Positions 16,486 through 57,573 of a stretch of DNA of 64,000 nt are shown piece by piece. This DNA is from Pontibacter sp. G13. GTDB lineage: Bacteria > Bacteroidota > Bacteroidia > J057. The notes under the pieces were generated by a model that did no database searches, was not told where the DNA came from, and saw nothing but the letters and a program-made list of their open reading frames with translations. The stretch lies in NCBI RefSeq assembly GCF_031851795.1, contig NZ_CP134696.1, forward strand, positions 6,820,001 to 6,884,000. Reading direction: 5' to 3'. Made by a program: the position numbers and the translations under genes. Numbering within the stretch: position 1 is the first letter of the stretch; each line of letters opens with the position of its first letter.

Positions 16486-19149
16486 GTGAAACAAAACGGA
16501 TTAACTACAAGGCCATTGACACTGGCCATCATGACCTTACTCGCTTGGGTCATGTCTACCGCTCCGGGAATCTCCCAGACATTGGTCTGGTCCCAAGAGT
16601 TCAACAACTCGACGATTGATACCGACACCTGGACCTACGATTTTGGAACGGGCTGTCACGAAGGCGTTTGCGATTGGGGAAATCAGGAACTCCAATACTA
16701 CACGAGTCGCACCGACAATGTGTACATCTCAGGAGGTTCGTTGATTATCGAAGCCAAATCGGAAACGTTTGATAACAAGTCATTTACCTCCGGGCGAATC
16801 AATACCGAAGGCCGGGTCCATTTCAAGTATGGTACCCTTGAGGCTCGGATACAGATCCCCAACCTCCAAAATGGATTGTGGCCTGCATTCTGGCTACTCG
16901 GAGTGACTGGAGGGGGCTGGCCCAACAACGGGGAAATCGACGTCGCTGAATGGGGAAATGCCAGCGGTATTTCTGCAGGGGTGGTGAATAACCGCGTAAA
17001 TGGCGCTGCACACTGGGAAGCCGGGGATGCCTATGCCGGATACGGTACCCATTCCGATTTTTCCCCTGCTTTGAACAATGATTACCACGTCTATAAGATG
17101 GTATGGACGCCTAGTCTCATTACCTGCTATATGGACGATGTGGAATACTATGCCATCGATATCTCTGGTGGTGCCGCCGCCGATTTGGAAGAATTCCACA
17201 ACATGAAATACATCCTGTTGAATCTCGCCGTAGGGGGTACATTCACAGGAATTACCAACCCCGGAGGCATCTCTGCGCCCATGCCCGCGCAATTGAAAAT
17301 AGATTACGTCCGGTTGTATCAGGATTCCAATGGAGAACTCTGGCTCGGGAGCCAAGATGCCGAATGCGGAAATTATGGGGTATACACCGAAAATACCGCG
17401 GTTTCGGAGCATATCAACTATGGTACCGAGGCCAATCTGTACCTGTGGAATGGACTAGCCAGCAACGGTGGTGCCGCCTACGAAGGGACCGATGTGATGT
17501 CATTCAGTACCACTGCAGGCGCATGGTACGGGTTGGGGGTGAGTGTGGAAGGCCGCAAAAATATGAGCAAATTCTATGGAGGCTCCCTCAAATTCCACAT
17601 GAAAACCAATGCCCCCGGAACTGTAAGAGCTGGGGTAAGTACTGGGCATGGAGATTCTTGGATAGACTTGACCTCCGCCTATGGATACGCCAATGATAAT
17701 CAGTGGCATGAGGTCACCATTCCGTTTTCAGATTTCTATGATCTGGACTTAGGCGCGGTGAAGCAGATGCTCATGATCACAGGAGATGTGCCGACCTCGA
17801 GTTTCGACATCGCCATTGACAACGTGTACTACGCCGATGGCGAAACTTGCACATCAGGAGTTCCTGTAACCGGGGTAGCGGTATCTCCCACTACCGGAAA
17901 CCTCAACGTCGGGAGCAGCCTTCAATTGGTAGCCACGATCACGCCTGCCAATGCCTCCAACCAAAATGTGAACTGGTCTTCGGACAATTCATCCGTCGCT
18001 ACAGTGGATGGCAATGGGTTGGTAACAACCGTGAGCGCTGGTTCTGCCACGATTACGGCTACCACGCTGGATGGAAGCTTTACTGCATCTGCCTCCATCA
18101 ACGTGAGCTCACCATCTTCCTCAGTACTGATTCAAGCGGAGGATTACACGTCGATGAGCGGCATCCAGACCGAGGGTACAGCCGATGTCGGTGGTGGAGA
18201 CAATGTGGGTTGGATCAATAGCGGAGATTGGATGGAGTATTCGGTGAATATTCCGGCGGCAGGAACCTACACGGTCCATTATCGTGTGGCGAGCCTCAGC
18301 AGTGGCGGAAACCTGACCATGACCGCCAATGGGTCCACGCTCGACAATACCACTTTTGCCGCAACCGGAAGCTGGCAGACTTGGACGACGGTCTCTTCCA
18401 CGGTGACACTCAATGCGGGTGTACAGACCATTCGGATTACGTCCAACAACAATGGCTGGAACATCAACTGGTTCGAGTTTGAGCCGAGCGGTGGTTCTAC
18501 CCCTGTGAATCTCTTTGTCGAGGCAGAGGACTACGACGCCATGTCAGGCATTCAAACGGAGAATACCGCAGATGCCGGTGGCGGAGAAAATGTCGGTTGG
18601 ATCGATGCGGGAGACTGGCTGGAGTATGACATTTCCGTGCCGAATGCGGGGAGCTATTCCATCGACTACCGGGTGGCCAGTCTGAGCAATGGCGGAGACT
18701 TTACGGTGACCTCAGACGGCAATACCGTGGACCATACCACTTTCTCATCGACGGGCAGCTGGCAGACGTGGACGACAGTTTCTTCAACGGTGAATTTGCC
18801 TGCTGGAAACCAGACGATTCGGATCACTGCGAATACTGGGGGCTGGAACATCAACTGGTTCGAGATCAGTAGTGGAGGCGCATCTCGCCCTGTTTCGATC
18901 TTCGAATTGCCGGAGGAGCGGATCATCGCCTATCCCGTGCCTTTCGGGGATCTACTTCATGTGACGCTGCCCAATACGGTGGATTATGAAAAGGTCGAAT
19001 TGCTGGACCTTTCCGGACGGATCCTCATGACCCAGCAAGTTCAAGCAACTGAGCTTCAATGGGAGACGGCCAATCTGCCAAGTGGGGTATATCTGCTGCG
19101 CGCGTTCCGCAGATTGGGAGCGCCTGAGATCCTGAAGATCACCAAGTAG
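16486..19149 (+). CDS. GH16 endo-beta-1,3-glucanase (laminarinase) with Big2, two CBM6 and T9SS tail
   Basis: 887 residues from a GTG start, which gives a signal peptide ending near ISQ. The GH16 domain covers about residues 30-280, with catalytic Glu150 and Glu155 in GEIDVAEWG and the substrate-cleft segment NGLWPAFWLLG. Residues 285-460 form a further beta-sandwich module, probably carbohydrate-binding. A Big2 Ig-like domain follows at 463-543 (VSPTTGNLNVGSSLQLVATI). Then come CBM6 domains at about 546-666 and 675-798 (VLIQAEDYTSMSGIQ; LFVEAEDYDAMSGIQ) and the T9SS tail from about 814. It should be secreted and cut laminarin-type beta-1,3-glucans internally. The last 1,039 bp are almost identical to those of the GH81 gene 92 bp downstream. 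Confidence 0.93.
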   Translation: MKQNGLTTRPLTLAIMTLLAWVMSTAPGISQTLVWSQEFNNSTIDTDTWTYDFGTGCHEGVCDWGNQELQYYTSRTDNVYISGGSLIIEAKSETFDNKSFTSGRINTEGRVHFKYGTLEARIQIPNLQNGLWPAFWLLGVTGGGWPNNGEIDVAEWGNASGISAGVVNNRVNGAAHWEAGDAYAGYGTHSDFSPALNNDYHVYKMVWTPSLITCYMDDVEYYAIDISGGAAADLEEFHNMKYILLNLAVGGTFTGITNPGGISAPMPAQLKIDYVRLYQDSNGELWLGSQDAECGNYGVYTENTAVSEHINYGTEANLYLWNGLASNGGAAYEGTDVMSFSTTAGAWYGLGVSVEGRKNMSKFYGGSLKFHMKTNAPGTVRAGVSTGHGDSWIDLTSAYGYANDNQWHEVTIPFSDFYDLDLGAVKQMLMITGDVPTSSFDIAIDNVYYADGETCTSGVPVTGVAVSPTTGNLNVGSSLQLVATITPANASNQNVNWSSDNSSVATVDGNGLVTTVSAGSATITATTLDGSFTASASINVSSPSSSVLIQAEDYTSMSGIQTEGTADVGGGDNVGWINSGDWMEYSVNIPAAGTYTVHYRVASLSSGGNLTMTANGSTLDNTTFAATGSWQTWTTVSSTVTLNAGVQTIRITSNNNGWNINWFEFEPSGGSTPVNLFVEAEDYDAMSGIQTENTADAGGGENVGWIDAGDWLEYDISVPNAGSYSIDYRVASLSNGGDFTVTSDGNTVDHTTFSSTGSWQTWTTVSSTVNLPAGNQTIRITANTGGWNINWFEISSGGASRPVSIFELPEERIIAYPVPFGDLLHVTLPNTVDYEKVELLDLSGRILMTQQVQATELQWETANLPSGVYLLRAFRRLGAPEILKITK
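18111..19149 (+). repeat. 1,039-bp direct repeat, copy 1 (CBM6-CBM6-T9SS module of GH16)
   Basis: This stretch recurs at 21653-22691 at a constant offset of 3,542 bp, with scattered single-base differences and no indels. The few protein changes include INSGDW/INTGDW, VDHTT/VDNTT, GNQT/GSQT and GDLLHVT/GDQLHMT. The match starts abruptly at ACCATCTTCC and ends exactly at the stop codon. Such identity points to recent duplication or ongoing gene conversion. Confidence 0.95.
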
Positions 19150-19172
19150 CGACAAGTTTTCATCTTCTGATG

Positions 19173-19216
19173 CATGGCTCCTGAGTCCTCGAGACACAGG
19201 GCAATAGAGAGCCATG
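19173..19216 (+). other. Inverted repeat between the two glucanase genes
   Basis: CATGGCTC at 19173-19180 pairs perfectly with GAGCCATG at 19209-19216, leaving a 28-nt loop. It occupies most of the 92-bp spacer and has no T-run, so it does not look like a terminator. A role in mRNA processing between the two messages is possible but unproven. Confidence 0.3.
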
Positions 19217-19241
19217 TCTTCCAACCACTTATTCGACTAAC

Positions 19242-22200
19242 ATGAAATTTTCTATAAATCTCCTCACTTGGGTGGCTTGCTGCTTCCTAGGTATGGGCCA
19301 CCTATACGCCCAATCGGCTGTATCAGTAGGATCTGGTTCCTATGCGTCCTATCCCCCAAGTCATGAATATATCGGAGGCCAAGCTGCGAACGGCACTTTT
19401 CAGGCATTCGCCACCAACAGTGCCAATATTGATGTGGATGCTTCAAAGATCAATGATCCCATCCCCACAAATGATTGGTGGACTAGTGTCCTGACTATGG
19501 AAGATGGGAATGGAAATCGCCACGGCGGGAATCTCTGGACCTATCCGTTGTTGAGCAGGGCCTCTACGAATGGATTTGAAATCGGTCATCGCACCGCCAA
19601 GGACTGGACAACAGATCAATTGGGCAGCCGAACCGTCACGGTAGATTATTTGGTCTATTTGTCTGGAAGTTCCTTTTCACCAACCAAGACGATCGCTGTA
19701 AACTGGTCAGATTGGCACGTGGATCTCCGCACACAGGTGGGAGACAACAGTTCTCAGCGAATCGACGTGACCTTGGCACAGGGGATGCCCTATGTCTGGG
19801 CGAAAACCACGGGGTTCGATCCGGTCATTCGGGCGATTCATCCGGGAGTGCGAAGCTATTTGAATGCCTCTGGTGGAACTCAAACATTTCCAGCCACACT
19901 GGATCGGTTTGCCATCGAATATGACGGCAACCTGTATGGGGTGCATTTTCCTCAAAACGTCACCATTACGGAGACGACCGCTGGATTGAGCATTGCAGGA
20001 CATGATGGGGAATGGATCGTCTTTTCCGCCCTGAATAGTCCAGCAGACCTGAATACCCTCCATCAGCACGCATTTGTGCGTCCGACCCATACCTCTTTGG
20101 ATTACAGCTATGATCCGAGCCAAGGCAGTGTCACCGCTACCTACAATATTTCCACAGATGTCATTTCAGGCACCCAAACCCAAGCGCTCCAAGGATTTAT
20201 TCCGCATCATTACCGGGGAAATGCCAATAGCTTTTCCTTCTCGGGATTGGAGTATTCGGGCACGCCGCGTGGACTGATGAAAATGGCCGCAGGTACCAGT
20301 TTTGCATTCAACTACGAATTCAATGCGGACCTTTTGCCTCATTTTACCTCCCCTCAGGTTTTGGCAGGAGAAAGTATTCCCTATGATCCCGCCAAGATGA
20401 AATCCATGATCGATGCCTATGCCAATGATGTGCAGCTCTATGGAATCGGCGGAGGGACCTACTGGGGCGGTAAGTATCTGCTCAGAGCGCTCAAATACAC
20501 CTTGATGGCCAAGGAAACCGGCAATGACAACTATGACGATCTGCTGGCCGCGACCAAGAGCCTCGTCCATGACTGGCTCACCTATACCCCCGGCGAAACC
20601 GAGATTTACTACAGCTATTATCCTGCCTGGAAAGCCTTGATTGGGTTCAATGAGGAGTACTATTCTGCCTTTTTTACAGATAATCACTTCCACTATGGCT
20701 ATTTGGCCCATGCCGCTGCTTTGCTGGAAATGGCAGAGCCCGGATCGATGGATGGCTATTGGGACATGGTGGAGAAGGTGATCAAGACCTATGCGAATTG
20801 GGACAAAAACGATCCTGAATTCCCATACCTCAGAACCTTCAGTCCATGGATGGGCCATTCCTTTGCCAATGGTCTAGGCAACTCCATCGGCAACAATCAG
20901 GAATCCAGTTCCGAAGCGATGCAGTCTTGGGCGGGTATGTTTATGGTCGCAGAAATGACTGGAAATACAGCCATGCGCGATGCGGCGGCTTTTGGTTACC
21001 TCACGGAAGGTAGAGCGATTGCCGATTATTGGTACAACGAAAGCGGGACATTCGATGAGATTGGATATACCAAGCCGATCACAGGAATCTTGGAAATGAA
21101 CCGCTACGTCTATGGTACCTTCTTCGGCGCGCAGGAAACCTATATTCACGGAATCCAATGGCTGCCAATCTCCCCAGCTTATGGATTTTGGAATGATTTC
21201 CTGACTGCTAGCGAGGCCGCGGCGATTGTCGATCCCATCATGAACAACATGTCTGCAGATTTGGGGGGGTCCATCAGTGCGGACTGGATGAATGTCTCTA
21301 TGGGATTCAAACTGTTTTTTGATCCTGAATCAGTGGTTTCACAGTTTGATGGGTACTGGAATGCTACCCCCGGCACGGATGAATACAATGTCGCTCACCA
21401 AAATGGCGAGAATGGAATCACCTATTACTATGCGCATGCTTCGCAGAATATCGGAGTTCGTCAGTCCAATTACCGATTGAGTCTGCCATTGAGCAGTGCA
21501 TTCGAGAAAAATGGAACGATGACCTATGTGGCCTACAATCCATCCAGTTCTGCGCAAACTTGTGAAGTGTACGCCAATGGGAGCCTTGTTACCTCGTTCT
21601 CTGTGCCTGCGCATACCTTGTACAACAGCAACGGGGGAGGGACAACGCCCCCACCATCTTCCTCAGTACTGATTCAAGCGGAGGATTACACGTCGATGAG
21701 CGGCATCCAGACCGAGGGTACAGCCGATGTCGGCGGTGGAGACAATGTGGGTTGGATCAATACCGGAGACTGGATGGAGTATTCGGTGAATATTCCGGCG
21801 GCGGGAACCTACACGGTCCATTATCGTGTGGCGAGCCTCAGCAGTGGCGGAAACCTGACCATGACCGCCAATGGGTCCACGCTCGACAATACCACTTTTG
21901 CCGCGACTGGAAGCTGGCAGACGTGGACGATGGTCTCTTCCACTGTGACACTCAATGCGGGTGTACAGACCATTCGGATTACGTCCAACAACAATGGCTG
22001 GAACATCAACTGGTTCGAGTTTGAGCCGAGCGGTGGTTCTACCCCTGTGAATCTCTTTGTCGAGGCAGAGGACTACGACGCCATGTCAGGCATTCAAACG
22101 GAGAATACCGCAGATGCCGGTGGCGGAGAAAATGTCGGTTGGATCGATGCGGGAGACTGGCTGGAGTATGACATTTCCGTGCCGAATGCGGGGAGCTATT

Positions 22201-22691
22201 CCATCGACTACCGGGTGGCCAGTCTGAGCAATGGCGGAGACTTTACGGTGACCTCAGACGGCAATACCGTGGACAATACCACTTTCTCATCGACGGGCAG
22301 CTGGCAGACGTGGACGACAGTTTCCTCAACGGTGAATTTGCCTGCTGGAAGCCAGACGATTCGGATCACTGCGAATACTGGCGGCTGGAACATCAACTGG
22401 TTCGAGATCAGTAGTGGAGGCGCATCTCGCCCTGTTTCGATCTTCGAATTGCCGGAGGAGCGGATCATCGCCTATCCCGTGCCTTTCGGGGATCAACTTC
22501 ATATGACGCTGCCCAATACGGTGGATTATGAAAAGGTCGAATTGCTGGACCTTTCCGGACGGATCATCATGACCCAGCAAGTTCATGCAACTGAGCTTCA
22601 ATGGGAGACGGCCAATCTGCCAAGTGGGGTATATCTGCTGCGCGCGTTCCGCAGATTGGGAGCGCCTGAGATCCTGAAGATCATCAAGTAA
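19242..22691 (+). CDS. GH81 endo-beta-1,3-glucanase with two CBM6 and T9SS tail
   Basis: 1,149 residues. A signal peptide ends near LYAQ. The GH81 domain fills about residues 30-780: the N-terminal signature NDPIPTNDWWTSVL, the acid-bearing FTDNHFHYGYLAHAAALLEM with Asp480, and NQESSSEAMQSWAGM with Glu554 and Glu558, one of which is the catalytic base. Residues 808-930 and 937-1060 are CBM6 modules and the T9SS sorting domain starts near 1076. GH81 enzymes hydrolyse beta-1,3-glucan internally by inversion, so with the GH16 enzyme upstream they attack the same polymer by different mechanisms. A linker NGGGTTPPP joins the catalytic part to the shared 3' module. A strong terminator follows. Confidence 0.93.
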   Translation: MKFSINLLTWVACCFLGMGHLYAQSAVSVGSGSYASYPPSHEYIGGQAANGTFQAFATNSANIDVDASKINDPIPTNDWWTSVLTMEDGNGNRHGGNLWTYPLLSRASTNGFEIGHRTAKDWTTDQLGSRTVTVDYLVYLSGSSFSPTKTIAVNWSDWHVDLRTQVGDNSSQRIDVTLAQGMPYVWAKTTGFDPVIRAIHPGVRSYLNASGGTQTFPATLDRFAIEYDGNLYGVHFPQNVTITETTAGLSIAGHDGEWIVFSALNSPADLNTLHQHAFVRPTHTSLDYSYDPSQGSVTATYNISTDVISGTQTQALQGFIPHHYRGNANSFSFSGLEYSGTPRGLMKMAAGTSFAFNYEFNADLLPHFTSPQVLAGESIPYDPAKMKSMIDAYANDVQLYGIGGGTYWGGKYLLRALKYTLMAKETGNDNYDDLLAATKSLVHDWLTYTPGETEIYYSYYPAWKALIGFNEEYYSAFFTDNHFHYGYLAHAAALLEMAEPGSMDGYWDMVEKVIKTYANWDKNDPEFPYLRTFSPWMGHSFANGLGNSIGNNQESSSEAMQSWAGMFMVAEMTGNTAMRDAAAFGYLTEGRAIADYWYNESGTFDEIGYTKPITGILEMNRYVYGTFFGAQETYIHGIQWLPISPAYGFWNDFLTASEAAAIVDPIMNNMSADLGGSISADWMNVSMGFKLFFDPESVVSQFDGYWNATPGTDEYNVAHQNGENGITYYYAHASQNIGVRQSNYRLSLPLSSAFEKNGTMTYVAYNPSSSAQTCEVYANGSLVTSFSVPAHTLYNSNGGGTTPPPSSSVLIQAEDYTSMSGIQTEGTADVGGGDNVGWINTGDWMEYSVNIPAAGTYTVHYRVASLSSGGNLTMTANGSTLDNTTFAATGSWQTWTMVSSTVTLNAGVQTIRITSNNNGWNINWFEFEPSGGSTPVNLFVEAEDYDAMSGIQTENTADAGGGENVGWIDAGDWLEYDISVPNAGSYSIDYRVASLSNGGDFTVTSDGNTVDNTTFSSTGSWQTWTTVSSTVNLPAGSQTIRITANTGGWNINWFEISSGGASRPVSIFELPEERIIAYPVPFGDQLHMTLPNTVDYEKVELLDLSGRIIMTQQVHATELQWETANLPSGVYLLRAFRRLGAPEILKIIK
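21653..22691 (+). repeat. 1,039-bp direct repeat, copy 2 (CBM6-CBM6-T9SS module of GH81)
   Basis: Second copy of the 18111-19149 segment, same length without indels. Here the module is joined to the GH81 catalytic part just after a Pro-rich linker. Differences from copy 1 are isolated substitutions (for example TTVSS to TMVSS, RILMTQQVQA to RIIMTQQVHA, KITK to KIIK). Both CBM6 domains within a copy are also related to each other, but much more distantly. Confidence 0.95.
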
Positions 22692-22716: not shown

Positions 22717-22760
22717 ATGGTCCCTTCGCCCATATTTCGGGCGAAGGGACCATGTGTTTT
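22717..22760 (+). terminator. Strong terminator between GH81 and the convergent LysR gene
   Basis: A perfect 15-bp stem (22717-22731 with 22739-22753) encloses a 7-nt loop and is followed by GTGTTTT. It sits between the convergent GH81 and LysR genes. The T-run is only on the GH81 side, though the stem could also act from the other direction. Confidence 0.85.
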
Positions 22761-25097: not shown

Positions 25098-25256
25098 GAG
25101 GTGCCCGGCGTGCTGGGTATCTGGAAATCACTTGGCATAGAAGTCGCCGGTCGGTCCCTTCCGAGCTCGCTGGCCGCTCGGTCTCGGATCTGGGGGCGAG
25201 ATATCGCCGCCCCCAGATCCGAGACTCCGCCTAAGGGCGGCCTCTCCAGGCACCTC
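25098..25256. repeat. GC-rich multi-hairpin intergenic element
   Basis: An outer 8-bp inverted repeat, GAGGTGCC (25098-25105) with GGCACCTC (25249-25256), encloses three stems. They are CCGAGC/GCTCGG (25161-25181), a perfect 18-bp stem (25181-25198 with 25208-25225) and CCGCC/GGCGG (25227-25240). The stretch is far richer in G+C than the AT-rich intergenic DNA around it and has no convincing reading frame. It looks like a palindromic interspersed repeat (REP/MITE-like) or a structured RNA. The rest of the 24961-25492 gap holds the terminator at 25020 and nothing else. Confidence 0.6.
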
Positions 25257-54010: not shown

Positions 54011-54059
54011 AGATGACCATTCAAGGAGCACGCCATCAGGTGAGACTGATGATTCGGTA
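54011..54059 (+). repeat. 49-bp direct repeat, upstream copy
   Basis: This sequence is identical to 57524-57572, the last 49 bp of the large T9SS gene that starts at 54202, with an offset of 3,513 bp. It encodes the end of the sorting domain (MTIQGARHQVRLMIR followed by TAA) but has no gene in front of it. The match begins and ends abruptly. It looks like the remnant of a lost paralogue or of a recombination event. Confidence 0.95.
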
Positions 54060-54201: not shown

Positions 54202-57200
54202 ATGCGCAATCTAACTCTATTGATTTGTCTGGTCTTATTAGGCCAATCGGCATTTAGTCAAACCACGATCCATAATTGGGCCTCTAAGGTTGGAAATGCC
54301 TCTTCAGAAAATATTCCGGTCATGACTACGGATGCATTTGACAATACGTTTATGGCAGGACATCGCGGATCATTATTTAATCCGCCCAATAGTATAGTTG
54401 TATCAAAATTCGATCAGCTTGGGAGTTTGGCATGGGTCAAGACATTCAATGCGACTGTAAACCAGCGGATAACCTCAATGGCTACTGACGCTTCGGGAAA
54501 CGTGTACGTAGTGGGGTACTTCACGGGGACCATGGATTTTGATCCCGGTCCGAGTACCTACAACATCACAACAGCAAGTGGTTTTCCAACGCCCACCACG
54601 AATGGATTCCTCTTGAAGTTGGATCCCCAGGGCAATTTTCTTTGGGCGGGAAATATGACAACTTTTCCTACGCAATGGGACGGGGCTTATTCCGATATTG
54701 TAGATGTAAAGCTGGACAGTCAGGGTAATATCTACCTACTGAGCACGGCATCTGGCAATGTGGATTTGGTACCCGGACCTGGAACCATTTTGATAAACGG
54801 AGGCAGTACAACTGGTGGAGCTAACTTTTCATATGATTGGGTGGTTACAAAATTGGATTCCAATGGGGTATTTAAGTTTTACCGATCAGGGGAAACCACT
54901 TCGGGTACTGTTGTCGAGTATGATATGCGTATCACCAGCAATGATGATGTCATGCTGGTCGCCTCTACATCAGATGATTCTGATTTTTGGAATTTGCCTA
55001 CTTTTTTAGAAAGTATGGCCGTGATCAAGCTCTCCAAAACCGGAGGTATTGTCTGGCATAAACAAATGGGGGGATTAGGATCCCTGTACCATAAGGGGAT
55101 TGAATTAGATCAAAATGACAATCTGTATATCACAGGTTACTATTACAATACCATCACTTTGTCGGCTCCCCCATCTCCTGTAACCCTAACCTCAATGAAC
55201 GGTTCTTATGACCCGATCATAATGAAGTTGGATACTGCGGGAAATCTGGTTTGGGTCTATGATATTTCAGGGCCGGATAATTATGAAGGATACAATATTC
55301 AGCCTTTATGTAATGGTCATGTGATAATAAATGGAAGAATGGATGGCCCCATTGACATGGAAGCAGGACCTGGATCGACTAATTTGAGTGCCGGTTCATA
55401 TCCTAGAAGTTTCATGTTGGAGATTGATGACTCGGCGGGTTTTGTCCATGCACAGGTGTTGCCTTATTTTCCTGGAGCTATGAATATGGGAGCCTCCTGC
55501 GATTTGTATATAGGAGGGACATTTAAACATGTTGTTGATTTTGATTTTGGGGCAGGGGTAGATGTACTGTCTCCGTATTCCAGTGTCCCCAATCCAGCCT
55601 CATACAATTCCGATCTCTTTGTGCATAAAATGAATGTTTGCCCTTCAGATCCTGTCACGATTGATACGGTATTTGCCTGCTCTCCTTATCAATGGATCGA
55701 TGGCCAATCCTATTCTGCTTCAAATAATTCAGCAACAGTGACCTACAGTGATCAAGATGGATGTGATAGTATCGTTTTACTTGATTTGACCATATTATCC
55801 AATCAGATAGACACCTTTGTCAATGCTTGCGATAGTTTTACGTGGCGTGGAAATACCTATTATCAGGCGGGAGTATATCCTGATTCTCTGGTGAATCAAT
55901 TCGGTTGCGACAGTGTGATCAACCTGAATCTGGACTTTCCGCTTGCTGGCCAACACCTTCTCCATATTGGGTGCGACAGCTTTTTATGGAAAGGCACGAC
56001 TTTCTATAATTCGGGAATATATATAGACACGGTAATCCTTCCACCAAATGGTTGTGTGATTTATGATACACTGGATCTGACACTGGATTATTCATTGATC
56101 GACACGGTTGTGGTGGCAAGTTGCGATAGCTTTTCCTGGTATGGAAATACTTATTATTCCTCTGGATTCTACACCTATTCAGGCATAGGAACGAATGGAT
56201 GCGATTTCATGTCGATCCTAGATCTCAGTATAGTGCCCTCTTCTTCGATTGTCCATGATACTGTCTTTTCATGTGTTTCATATAATTGGGGTTCTGATAC
56301 CTTGTTATTTTCTGGTGATTATGTCCAGAGTTTTTCGAACCAATATGGGTGTGATAGTACCGTTGAGTTGTATTTGACTATTTTAAATCCGTCAACAGGA
56401 GATACCACTGCCTATGCATGCGATTCATTCTATTGGCATGGAGGTACCTATTTTTCCTCAGGCCAATACGTCGACACCCTCATCAATCAAGACGGTTGTG
56501 ATAGTCTATTAACCCTGAACCTCCATCTTGGAAACTCTGTAGAAGTGGATACGGCCTGTAACTTTTTCTTTTGGGGAGGACAGTTGCTGACCTCCTCAGG
56601 CATCTATTACGACACGCTCTCCAACCCATACGGTTGCGATAGCATTTTACAGTTAAATCTCGTAATCAATTCTACCACATATAGTCAGGCCAACATCTCT
56701 GCCTGCGACAGCTTCACTTGGCAAGGCTCCACCTATTTCCAGTCGGGAGTTTATCAGGACACGCTCACGAATGCCGCGGGCTGCGACAGTATCCTCACCT
56801 TGGCCTTGAATATTGAGACACCTGTGTTCTCAGATACAACTGTAGTGGCGTGCGATCAATTCGTTTGGTGGGGGATTACCTATTCGCAATCGGGACAATA
56901 TGCAGATACCGCAACCACCATTGCCGGATGTATGGATATTCGGACGCTGCATTTGACAGTGAAGCAATCAACCACAGGAGATACAGCCGCCACCTCTTGT
57001 GGACCATTCACTTGGCAAGGTGCGACCTATTCGCAATCAGGTGAATACACCCACACATTCACTAACTCCACGGGATGTGACAGCATCGTGAAATTGACGC
57101 TCACGGTGAATGGCGTAGACGACCTCACTACAATGCTCGAAGGGCATACCATCGCCGCGAATGCAATGAATGCTTCTTTCCAATGGCTGGATTGTGACAG

Positions 57201-57573
57201 TGGATACGTAGCGATTTCTGGTGCTACGGATAGGACATTCACACCCACGCAAAATGGAAATTATGCGGTTGAAATCACCCAGAATGGCTGTGTGGATACG
57301 ACGGCCTGCGTGAATGTAACGACTGTGGGTATTTCAGACGCGCTTGCCGCTAGGATCTCGGTGTATCCCAATCCCAGCGATGGCCAATTCACGCTGGATC
57401 TGGGCGGAGTGGAAGCCTCTGATCTCGAGATCTATGACCTCGCAGGCAAGCACTTGATGGATCTGGAATCGGTGGATCGGCAAGTCATTCAATTGGAGGT
57501 GAGTCAAGGGGTCTATCTCCTGCAGATGACCATTCAAGGAGCACGCCATCAGGTGAGACTGATGATTCGGTAG
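54202..57573 (+). CDS. Large secreted repeat protein with T9SS tail
   Basis: 1,123 residues with a signal peptide (MRNLTLLICLVLLGQSAFSQ). Residues 25-480 form a beta-propeller-like section of SBBP type (MATDASGNVYVVGYFTGTMD, FDPGPSTYN, KLDPQGNFLWAGNM, DLVPGPGT). Residues 488-972 hold ten tandem units of about 48 residues with a CDSFTWRGNTYYQAGVYPDS...GCDSVINLNL pattern. An Ig-like domain (FQWLDCDSGYVAISGATDRT) and a type A T9SS sorting domain (ISVYPNPSDGQFTLDLGG, YDLAGKHLMDL) end the chain. It should be an adhesive or structural cell-surface protein. The propeller and repeats look more AT-rich than the last 450 bp, hinting at a mosaic origin. Confidence 0.9.
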   Translation: MRNLTLLICLVLLGQSAFSQTTIHNWASKVGNASSENIPVMTTDAFDNTFMAGHRGSLFNPPNSIVVSKFDQLGSLAWVKTFNATVNQRITSMATDASGNVYVVGYFTGTMDFDPGPSTYNITTASGFPTPTTNGFLLKLDPQGNFLWAGNMTTFPTQWDGAYSDIVDVKLDSQGNIYLLSTASGNVDLVPGPGTILINGGSTTGGANFSYDWVVTKLDSNGVFKFYRSGETTSGTVVEYDMRITSNDDVMLVASTSDDSDFWNLPTFLESMAVIKLSKTGGIVWHKQMGGLGSLYHKGIELDQNDNLYITGYYYNTITLSAPPSPVTLTSMNGSYDPIIMKLDTAGNLVWVYDISGPDNYEGYNIQPLCNGHVIINGRMDGPIDMEAGPGSTNLSAGSYPRSFMLEIDDSAGFVHAQVLPYFPGAMNMGASCDLYIGGTFKHVVDFDFGAGVDVLSPYSSVPNPASYNSDLFVHKMNVCPSDPVTIDTVFACSPYQWIDGQSYSASNNSATVTYSDQDGCDSIVLLDLTILSNQIDTFVNACDSFTWRGNTYYQAGVYPDSLVNQFGCDSVINLNLDFPLAGQHLLHIGCDSFLWKGTTFYNSGIYIDTVILPPNGCVIYDTLDLTLDYSLIDTVVVASCDSFSWYGNTYYSSGFYTYSGIGTNGCDFMSILDLSIVPSSSIVHDTVFSCVSYNWGSDTLLFSGDYVQSFSNQYGCDSTVELYLTILNPSTGDTTAYACDSFYWHGGTYFSSGQYVDTLINQDGCDSLLTLNLHLGNSVEVDTACNFFFWGGQLLTSSGIYYDTLSNPYGCDSILQLNLVINSTTYSQANISACDSFTWQGSTYFQSGVYQDTLTNAAGCDSILTLALNIETPVFSDTTVVACDQFVWWGITYSQSGQYADTATTIAGCMDIRTLHLTVKQSTTGDTAATSCGPFTWQGATYSQSGEYTHTFTNSTGCDSIVKLTLTVNGVDDLTTMLEGHTIAANAMNASFQWLDCDSGYVAISGATDRTFTPTQNGNYAVEITQNGCVDTTACVNVTTVGISDALAARISVYPNPSDGQFTLDLGGVEASDLEIYDLAGKHLMDLESVDRQVIQLEVSQGVYLLQMTIQGARHQVRLMIR
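55640..57117 (+). repeat. Ten tandem cysteine-containing repeats (about 48 codons each)
   Basis: Each unit reads roughly D-x5-CDSF-x-W-x-G-x-TY-x-x-SG-x-Y-x-DTL-x-N-x-x-GCDS-x-x-x-LNL. Most have two cysteines about 28 residues apart, so each could close one disulfide. Units 3, 5 and 7 are the most divergent. The DNA of the units is much less conserved than the protein, so the array is old and not a recent expansion. Confidence 0.85.
57524..57572 (+). repeat. 49-bp direct repeat, downstream copy (end of the T9SS gene)
   Basis: Identical to 54011-54059. Here it is the true 3' end of the T9SS gene, encoding the last 15 residues and all but the last base of the stop codon, which is TAG here and TAA in the upstream copy. 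Confidence 0.95.

What the first reader, a model, noticed from the sequence alone, without database searches (positions are those of the whole stretch)
18111..22691. GH16 and GH81 glucanases share an almost identical 1,039-bp CBM6-CBM6-T9SS tail
The last 1,039 bp of both genes match at a constant offset (3,542 bp) with scattered substitutions and no indels, while the catalytic parts are unrelated. The match starts inside a linker and ends at the stop codon. This is direct evidence of a tail being copied onto a second catalytic domain, or kept alike by gene conversion. A portable cassette of two glucan-binding modules plus an export tag is an effective way to build new surface enzymes.
Basis: seen in the sequence. 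Interest (0 to 1): 0.65.

Follow-up and report, generated by a model that had tools for sequence, protein, structure and literature searches.

The report
Neighbouring glucanases share one copied tail
Two neighbouring sugar-cutting enzyme genes with unrelated front parts carry an almost identical rear part, and the same genome and a distant relative show further neighbour groups with shared tails, so rear parts appear to be passed between adjacent genes and to stay alike within a gene cluster.

Summary
In detail: window 18111-19149 and 21653-22691 match over 1,039 bp with 19 differences and no gap; similarity stops dead at a linker and at the stop codon. The shared part is CBM6-CBM6-T9SS sorting domain; the front parts (GH16-X-Big_2, GH81) are unrelated. 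The genome holds only these two near-identical copies, so this is local copying, not a dispersed cassette. Comparison favours recombination between neighbours. (1) Strain Hp32 has a 75%-identical GH81 beside a GH16 and a GH64; its tail differs from the window's, but its three neighbours share theirs, segment by segment. (2) In the window's genome two paralogous gene trios have catalytic parts that match across loci and tails that match within each locus. (3) Another adjacent pair shows a conversion-like boundary: 10 differences in 30 bp, then 2 in 221 bp to the stop. Among 150 T9SS genes, tail-only sharing occurs in 3 of 55 near same-strand pairs and 3 of 11,120 others. I infer, but have not shown, that the sorting domain at the 3' end of every cargo gene supplies the homology. 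Donor and date stay open: no congener is held.

The parts
16486..19149 (+). GH16 gene (887 aa, GTG start): GH16 - X module - Big_2 - CBM6 - CBM6 - T9SS sorting domain
16570..17331 (+). GH16 catalytic domain; nearest solved chains are laminarinases (8xph, E 8e-57)
17332..17841 (+). X module after GH16, kept in some GH16 homologues (best 49% over GH16+X, G163); no Pfam match
17863..18093 (+). Big_2 Ig-like domain; the match to the second gene begins about 17 bp after it
18110..19149 (+). Tail copy A (CBM6-CBM6-T9SS CTD), 98.2% identical to copy B
18133..18483 (+). CBM6-1 of copy A (copy B 21675-22025); carries 7 of the 9 synonymous differences
18403..18732 (+). 330-bp run without any difference between the copies (end of CBM6-1, linker, first part of CBM6-2)
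18505..18873 (+). CBM6-2 of copy A (copy B 22047-22415); limits set by eye from the second CBM6 stretch
18931..19146 (+). T9SS sorting domain (Por_Secre_tail / TIGR04183) of copy A, from the Pfam start to the C terminus (copy B 22473-22688)
19242..22691 (+). GH81 gene (1149 aa), 92 bp downstream of the GH16 gene: GH81 - CBM6 - CBM6 - T9SS CTD
19320..21600 (+). GH81 catalytic part: 75% to the Hp32 orthologue, 29% to the genome's own second GH81
21652..22691 (+). Tail copy B
22717..22753 (+). Terminator-like hairpin after the GH81 gene (15 pairs, 10 G-C); none listed between the two genes. The scan found 8 such sites against a shuffle mean of 5.8, so single hits prove little

Best explanation
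The two adjacent beta-1,3-glucanase genes exchanged or homogenised their 3' ends recently by non-reciprocal homologous recombination (gene conversion in the wide sense). As a result the GH16 and the GH81 enzyme carry the same pair of CBM6 modules and the same T9SS export tag. Shown: near-identity bounded by a linker and the stop codon; other neighbour groups with locus-specific shared tails; a conversion-like boundary in another adjacent pair. Inferred: the T9SS CTD, present at the 3' end of each cargo gene, supplies the homology that starts the event; copying then runs upstream through the binding modules and rejoins in a low-complexity linker, and it stops at the stop codon because homology ends there. 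Inferred function: both enzymes leave through T9SS and are held on the same beta-glucan, GH16 and GH81 cutting the same chain.
For: Two near-identical copies on unrelated catalytic parts, flanks without residual similarity. Only two copies in the genome. Synonymous differences are uneven: dS 0.092 in CBM6-1, 0.022 in CBM6-2, 0 in the CTD region (change-point p 0.028 on synonymous, cold-segment p 0.022 on all differences). Hp32 orthologue: GH81 catalytic part 75%, tail end about 42%, while the Hp32 GH16, GH81 and GH64 genes share tails in a mosaic (CTD H16/H81 73% aa against 30% for either with H64; CBM6 H16/H64 63% against 45% for H16/H81 and 50% for H81/H64). A 38-41% GH81 relative (L268) ends in a short T9SS tail without a CBM6 match. 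Trios A and B in the same genome: catalytic parts pair across loci (47, 25, 40%), tails pair within loci (55-75% and 74-81%); gene C2 has the B2 catalytic part (69%) but the A-type tail (57-67%). L113 adjacent pair: 10 of 12 differences in the first 30 of 251 bp, then 99% identity to the stop. Tail-only sharing in 3 of 55 near pairs versus 3 of 11,120 others.
Against: No congener is held (13 genomes of the family, no second one of the genus), so the window event cannot be dated or polarised; of nine replacements only one (T to M in the GH81 copy) could be polarised. The heterogeneity tests are marginal and some fail: p 0.70 (all differences, change point), 0.10 (synonymous, cold segment), 0.16 (longest synonymous gap). 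Unlike L113, the window pair has no diverged-but-homologous margin at its left end, so a single illegitimate duplication is not excluded. The Hp32 H16/H81 match and the L037 pair run past the stop codon, so the stop is not a universal limit. Three tail-only pairs in this genome are megabases apart. The census rests on a capped list and its pairs are not independent. Only one orthologous locus was found. Glucan binding and secretion were not tested.
Confidence: 0.68

Rival explanations
1. One recent illegitimate (non-homologous) duplication pasted the tail of one gene onto the other; nothing has been homogenised since.
For: Sharp ends without a diverged homologous margin and no indels; all 19 differences show no single change point (p 0.70) and the longest synonymous gap is not unusual (p 0.16).
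Against: The right end falls at the stop codon, which a random breakpoint would rarely do; the same holds for two other recent tail copies in this genome. Synonymous differences are uneven. The L113 pair shows a conversion-like boundary.
Confidence: 0.2
2. The two genes arrived together from an outside donor already sharing the tail, so the copying happened elsewhere.
For: The GH81 subfamily is patchy: among the genomes searched only Hp32 has a 75% relative, which suggests horizontal transfer; in Hp32 the triple sits between hisA and hisF.
Against: The Hp32 tails are made of other modules and about 42% identical at the end; the GH16 genes of the two loci are only 34-36% identical, and the window GH16 is closer to other genomes (49%). 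No outside copy of the tail was found: best segments 51%, 50%, 45%, short pieces to 58%.
Confidence: 0.1
3. Assembly artefact (collapsed or duplicated repeat).
For: Near-identical repeats 3.5 kb apart are a known trouble for assemblers; read depth could not be seen.
Against: Nineteen scattered differences, dN/dS about 0.3 and no frameshift; a 7.54-Mb contig.
Confidence: 0.02

Closest known systems
Porphyromonas gingivalis rgpA / kgp / hagA shared adhesin regions (PMC5266723, abstract part and passages seen)
   Same: T9SS cargo genes of a Bacteroidota share identical repeated C-terminal modules; the authors describe combinatorial modularity and allelic exchange.
   Different: There the shared part is a set of adhesin domains in proteinase and haemagglutinin genes, discussed as diversification. 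Here the tail is CBM6 plus sorting domain on unrelated glycoside hydrolases side by side, and tails are alike by locus.
Hp32 GH16-GH81-GH64 triple (SIHP01000006.1, found here)
   Same: Adjacent beta-1,3-glucanase-family genes with a shared CBM6-T9SS tail; GH81 orthologue 75%.
   Different: Different tail (an unnamed module of about 147 aa, one CBM6, other CTD), older and mosaic sharing (49-81% DNA by module), third gene GH64.
Modular laminarinases of Saccharophagus degradans (PMC2386152, passages seen)
   Same: GH16 with CBM6-CBM6, and a GH81, in one genome.
   Different: Lam16G (Sde_2832, LPB/GH16/CBM6/CBM6) and Lam81A (Sde_2834, LPB/CAD/GH81/FN3/FN3) lie close by number but are listed with different accessory modules and no T9SS tail.
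Homogenised neighbouring giant surface-protein genes of Apilactobacillus kunkeei (PMC12863079, passages seen)
   Same: Homologous recombination spanning adjacent genes for large extracellular proteins is proposed to keep them alike.
   Different: The passages speak of surface proteins and of tracts that span two genes, compared between strains; no tail on unrelated enzymes.

Membership tests
GH16 laminarinase | GH16 catalytic domain related to solved laminarinases | tested here: met
   Pfam PF00722 E 1.7e-14; 8xph laminarinase E 8e-57
GH16 laminarinase | activity on beta-1,3-glucan | not testable with these tools
   needs an assay
GH81 endo-beta-1,3-glucanase | GH81 N- and C-terminal domains | tested here: met
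   PF17652 E 8.9e-38, PF03639 E 3.2e-7; 6fop E 1.9e-64, BH0236 entries about 5e-46
CBM6 | two CBM6 domains in each tail, with the aromatic and Asn positions of the binding cleft | tested here: met
   PF03422 E 2.9e-62 and 2e-63, two stretches each. Alignments of the copy A modules to 1uxz and 5fui keep the aromatic (Y/W) in NVG[YW]I, the W of WQxWTT and the N of GWNxNW; that these line the cleft is recalled
CBM6 | binds beta-1,3-glucan | not testable with these tools
   solved relatives include CBM6 of a GH16 endo-1,3-beta-glucanase (5fui) and of BH0236 (1w9s), after 8zvk and 1uxz
T9SS type A cargo | C-terminal sorting domain above the curated cut-off | tested here: met
   TIGR04183 30.5 and 30.1 bits, cut-off 23; 150 such matches listed in the genome, a capped list
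T9SS type A cargo | secretion by T9SS | not testable with these tools
   needs a mutant or proteomics
Gene conversion / concerted evolution | paralogous segments more alike within a genome than to their orthologues | tested here: met
   GH81: catalytic 75%, tail end about 42% to Hp32, but 98% DNA within the window pair and 58-62% aa within Hp32. One orthologous locus only
Gene conversion / concerted evolution | tract with abrupt change of divergence inside homologous sequence | tested here: inconclusive
   clear for the L113 pair; for the window pair only uneven dS, p 0.02 to 0.7 by test
Mobile cassette | further copies dispersed in the genome | tested here: not met
   two near-identical copies only
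Mobile cassette | mobility genes or boundary repeats | tested here: inconclusive
   no inverted repeats of 30 bp or more in the window; no recombinase recognised by eye among the ORFs, but no family search was run on those ORFs

The most novel reading that the evidence does not exclude
The T9SS sorting domain, which sits at the 3' end of every cargo gene, acts as a built-in homology anchor. It lets adjacent cargo genes pass whole C-terminal modules to each other by one-sided homologous recombination, so that all enzymes of a polysaccharide locus come to wear the same substrate-binding tail and can be re-targeted together when one of them gets a new tail.
Probability: 0.33. Interest if true: 0.75.

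Novelty: new variant of a known kind. Interest (0 to 1): 0.57.

Why it matters
Shuffling of binding modules is mostly read off old, diverged domains. Here is a fresh case between neighbours, with older cases of the same pattern in the same genome and in another Bacteroidota. If the rule 'the tail belongs to the locus, the catalytic part to the gene' holds widely, C-terminal modules of T9SS enzymes should not be used to infer gene history, a shared tail would flag enzymes that act on the same polymer, and the rate of tail exchange between adjacent T9SS genes becomes measurable in strain collections.

Tried and rejected
Dispersed mobile cassette: rejected, two copies only. Exchange in close relatives: could not be tested, because no congener is held and 0 of 12 other family members has a DNA match. 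Base composition as a sign of foreign origin: tail GC3 0.64-0.65 against 0.56-0.58 for the catalytic parts, but five other genes of this genome range over 0.57-0.66 in both parts, so dropped. Donor by polarised substitutions: one site only. A first count of 9 of 57 near pairs against 4 of 11,268 was cut: four of the nine are pairs of genes with porphyranase domains at 2.26 Mb whose front parts are also 67-76% alike, and the hand-added gene 366990 was left out. The count used is 3 of 55 against 3 of 11,120 (150 genes). The version with two hand-added neighbours (7 of 61 against 3 of 11,415, 152 genes) is biased upward by that addition.

Census limits: one search lists 150 matches (150 of 316 candidates scored). 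I used the 149 on contig C1 plus the GH81 copy, which was not on that list; the one on C3 was fetched and blasted but is not in the census. Genes were read only as far as the fetched 3 kb upstream allowed. In one search the GH81 copy was entered out of frame, and gene 366984 was; both were set right. The L113 upstream partner is not among the 150.

Other adjacent pairs among the 34 loci: L039 is dropped as an example, since its two genes are alike (46%) over 581 aa; L037 is mixed (front part of one gene 63% to the middle of the other); L057 (Clostridium KNHs205) shares CBM6-dockerin in the middle of both proteins, not at the end; L030, L035, L041, L053, L055 and L061 also have internal repeats that I did not follow to the genes in full. 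A scan of viral contigs confirmed no GH81 relative. Ten literature searches turned up no report of T9SS tail sharing between adjacent glycoside hydrolases; of the papers listed I looked into five by passages, the rest only as listings, and subscription journals are mostly not held. PMC2699552 held nothing of use.

Full report
WHAT IS THERE. The GH16 gene (16486-19149) and the GH81 gene (19242-22691) are 92 bp apart on the + strand. Their last 1,039 bp match with 19 differences and no gap. Identity drops to chance within 10 bp on either side, and 300-bp flanks show no residual similarity. Pfam reads the shared part as CBM6, CBM6 and the T9SS sorting domain; the parts before it are GH16-X-Big_2 and GH81 and are unrelated. 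Among the differences 9 are synonymous, 9 not, and one turns TAG into TAA; dN 0.011, dS 0.037. The solved relatives of the CBM6 modules are led by 8zvk (AaBgIC) and 1uxz (cellulase B) and include those of a GH16 endo-1,3-beta-glucanase (5fui) and of BH0236 (1w9s). BH0236 also appears among the GH81 matches.

HOW MANY COPIES. The window lies on a 7.54-Mb contig of a 7.67-Mb, 98.1%-complete genome. Only two near-identical copies exist; three further DNA matches are 68% over 148-176 bp. At protein level the next is a GH5-CBM6-CBM6-T9SS enzyme, 41%. None of the 12 other genomes held for the family has a DNA match. So this is a local event, not a dispersed cassette.

TRACES OF CONVERSION IN THE PAIR. 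Seven of nine synonymous differences lie in the first 98 codons; dS is 0.092 in CBM6-1, 0.022 in CBM6-2 and 0 in the CTD region, and there is a 330-bp run without difference (longest-gap p 0.013 on all differences, 0.16 on synonymous ones). Tests that do not choose the boundary in advance give p 0.028 (synonymous, change point), 0.10 (synonymous, cold segment), 0.022 (all, cold segment) and 0.70 (all, change point). This leans towards patchy homogenisation but does not prove it.

THE ORTHOLOGOUS LOCUS. Flavobacteriaceae bacterium Hp32 (SIHP01000006.1) carries GH16, GH81 and GH64 genes in a row between hisA and hisF (its GH16 domain is seen through the match to the window GH16, not through Pfam). 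Its GH81 is 75% identical to the window's over the catalytic part. No other genome searched came near: 0 of 394 others in the phylum sample passed E 1e-60, 2 of 394 others in the class sample passed E 1e-75, at 40-41%, and the other 30 matching genomes of 397 in Hp32's family were at 28-32%. The alignment of the two GH81 proteins runs to the linker and then breaks; the last 215 aa are about 42% identical, and the Hp32 protein has an F5/8 type C match and one CBM6 where the window has two CBM6. Yet within Hp32 the three neighbours share tails: a module of about 147 aa without a Pfam match (beta-trefoil-like to my eye) 76-83% aa in all three; CBM6 63% between GH16 and GH64 but 45-50% with GH81; CTD 73% between GH16 and GH81 but 30% with GH64. 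Different segments thus have different closest partners. GH16 proteins of two unnamed same-class genomes (L212, L213), which lack a GH81 match at E 1e-60, align with the Hp32 GH16 protein in one stretch from GH16 into that module (46-47% over 721-740 aa). This suggests that in Hp32 the GH16 gene was the source. Of the more distant GH81 relatives (38-41%), L268 has only GH81 and a T9SS tail by Pfam, with no CBM6; L269 has the same length; a third, L270 (33-35%, 1275 aa), shows no match to the tail and was not scanned.

OTHER LOCI OF THE SAME GENOME. Trio A (L104, 361.7-369.8 kb) and trio B (L133, 2.247-2.254 Mb) each hold three adjacent T9SS genes with unrelated catalytic parts. Position by position the catalytic parts pair across the loci (47, 25 and 40%), but the tails pair within the locus: FnIII-like repeats, CBM6 and CTD in A (55-75%), another module plus CTD in B (74-81%; a weak ricin-type lectin match in B1 only). 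A seventh gene (C2, L201 445-3201) has the catalytic part of B2 (69%) with the A-type tail (57-67%) (domains). In L113 two adjacent genes with unrelated front parts share 251 bp of CTD: 10 differences in the first 30 bp, which are alignable, then 2 in 221 bp up to the stop, then nothing (p 7e-9). That is what a conversion tract inside an older homology looks like. In 150 T9SS genes, tail-only sharing (at least 50% aa over at least 150 aa to the end, front parts without a match at E 1e-3) occurs in 3 of 55 same-strand pairs closer than 15 kb and in 3 of 11,120 other pairs (Fisher p 2e-6, pairs not independent). A scan of 150 gene ends against the fetched own regions printed 45 rows (at least 28 bp, 80%), of which 4 lie in tails: the window pair twice, the L113 pair, and a 49-bp copy in the window. 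The other 41 lie downstream of stops. The three tail cases are each less than 4 kb apart, on the same strand, and end at the second base of the stop. Regions that were not fetched were not scanned.

READING. Neighbouring T9SS genes recombine at their 3' ends. The CTD offers homology in every cargo gene and coding homology ends at the stop; upstream the copied stretch may end in a linker. This resembles homology-facilitated one-sided recombination as known from other bacteria (recalled, not searched). The result is that enzymes of one locus carry the same binding modules. For the window pair: GH16 and GH81 endo-glucanases, both exported by T9SS and both held on beta-1,3-glucan (function inferred from families).

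WHAT IS KNOWN. The nearest precedent I saw is the shared adhesin region of P. gingivalis rgpA, kgp and hagA, where identical repeats within and between these genes defeated automated assembly (PMC5266723; passages). Homogenisation spanning adjacent giant genes is proposed in A. kunkeei (PMC12863079; passages). S. degradans has GH16 and GH81 laminarinases close by number but with different modules (PMC2386152; passages), so shared function alone does not bring shared tails. A T9SS cellulase cluster with varied architectures is described for Ca. Paraporphyromonas (PMC5831590; passages).

Noticed in passing
window 54011-54059 and 57524-57572: Exact 49-bp direct repeat. The second copy is the end of a T9SS gene (54202-57573) up to the second base of its stop; the first lies in the intergenic space before that same gene, in no long open frame: a remnant or copy of a T9SS tail end.
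   Followed up: partly
L113 695-2785: Adjacent T9SS genes share 251 bp of sorting domain with an abrupt change of divergence 30 bp in: a clear conversion-like boundary.
   Followed up: yes
L264 2873-14367: In Hp32 a GH16-GH81-GH64 triple interrupts the histidine genes between hisA and hisF.
   Followed up: partly
window 25101-25212: 112-bp intergenic stretch 86% identical to one downstream of a T9SS gene at 3,163,457; related copies of 63-91 bp at four other places: a dispersed intergenic repeat.
   Followed up: no
L057 4941-5614 and 7867-8540: Clostridium sp. KNHs205: neighbouring GH10-esterase and GH62-SASA genes share an internal CBM6-dockerin segment (90% DNA over 674 bp), so sharing between neighbours is not limited to T9SS tails.
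   Followed up: partly
L133 12286-18301, L134 316-8295: Row of paralogues with porphyranase domain matches; four of them with T9SS tails are 64-78% alike over long stretches.
   Followed up: no
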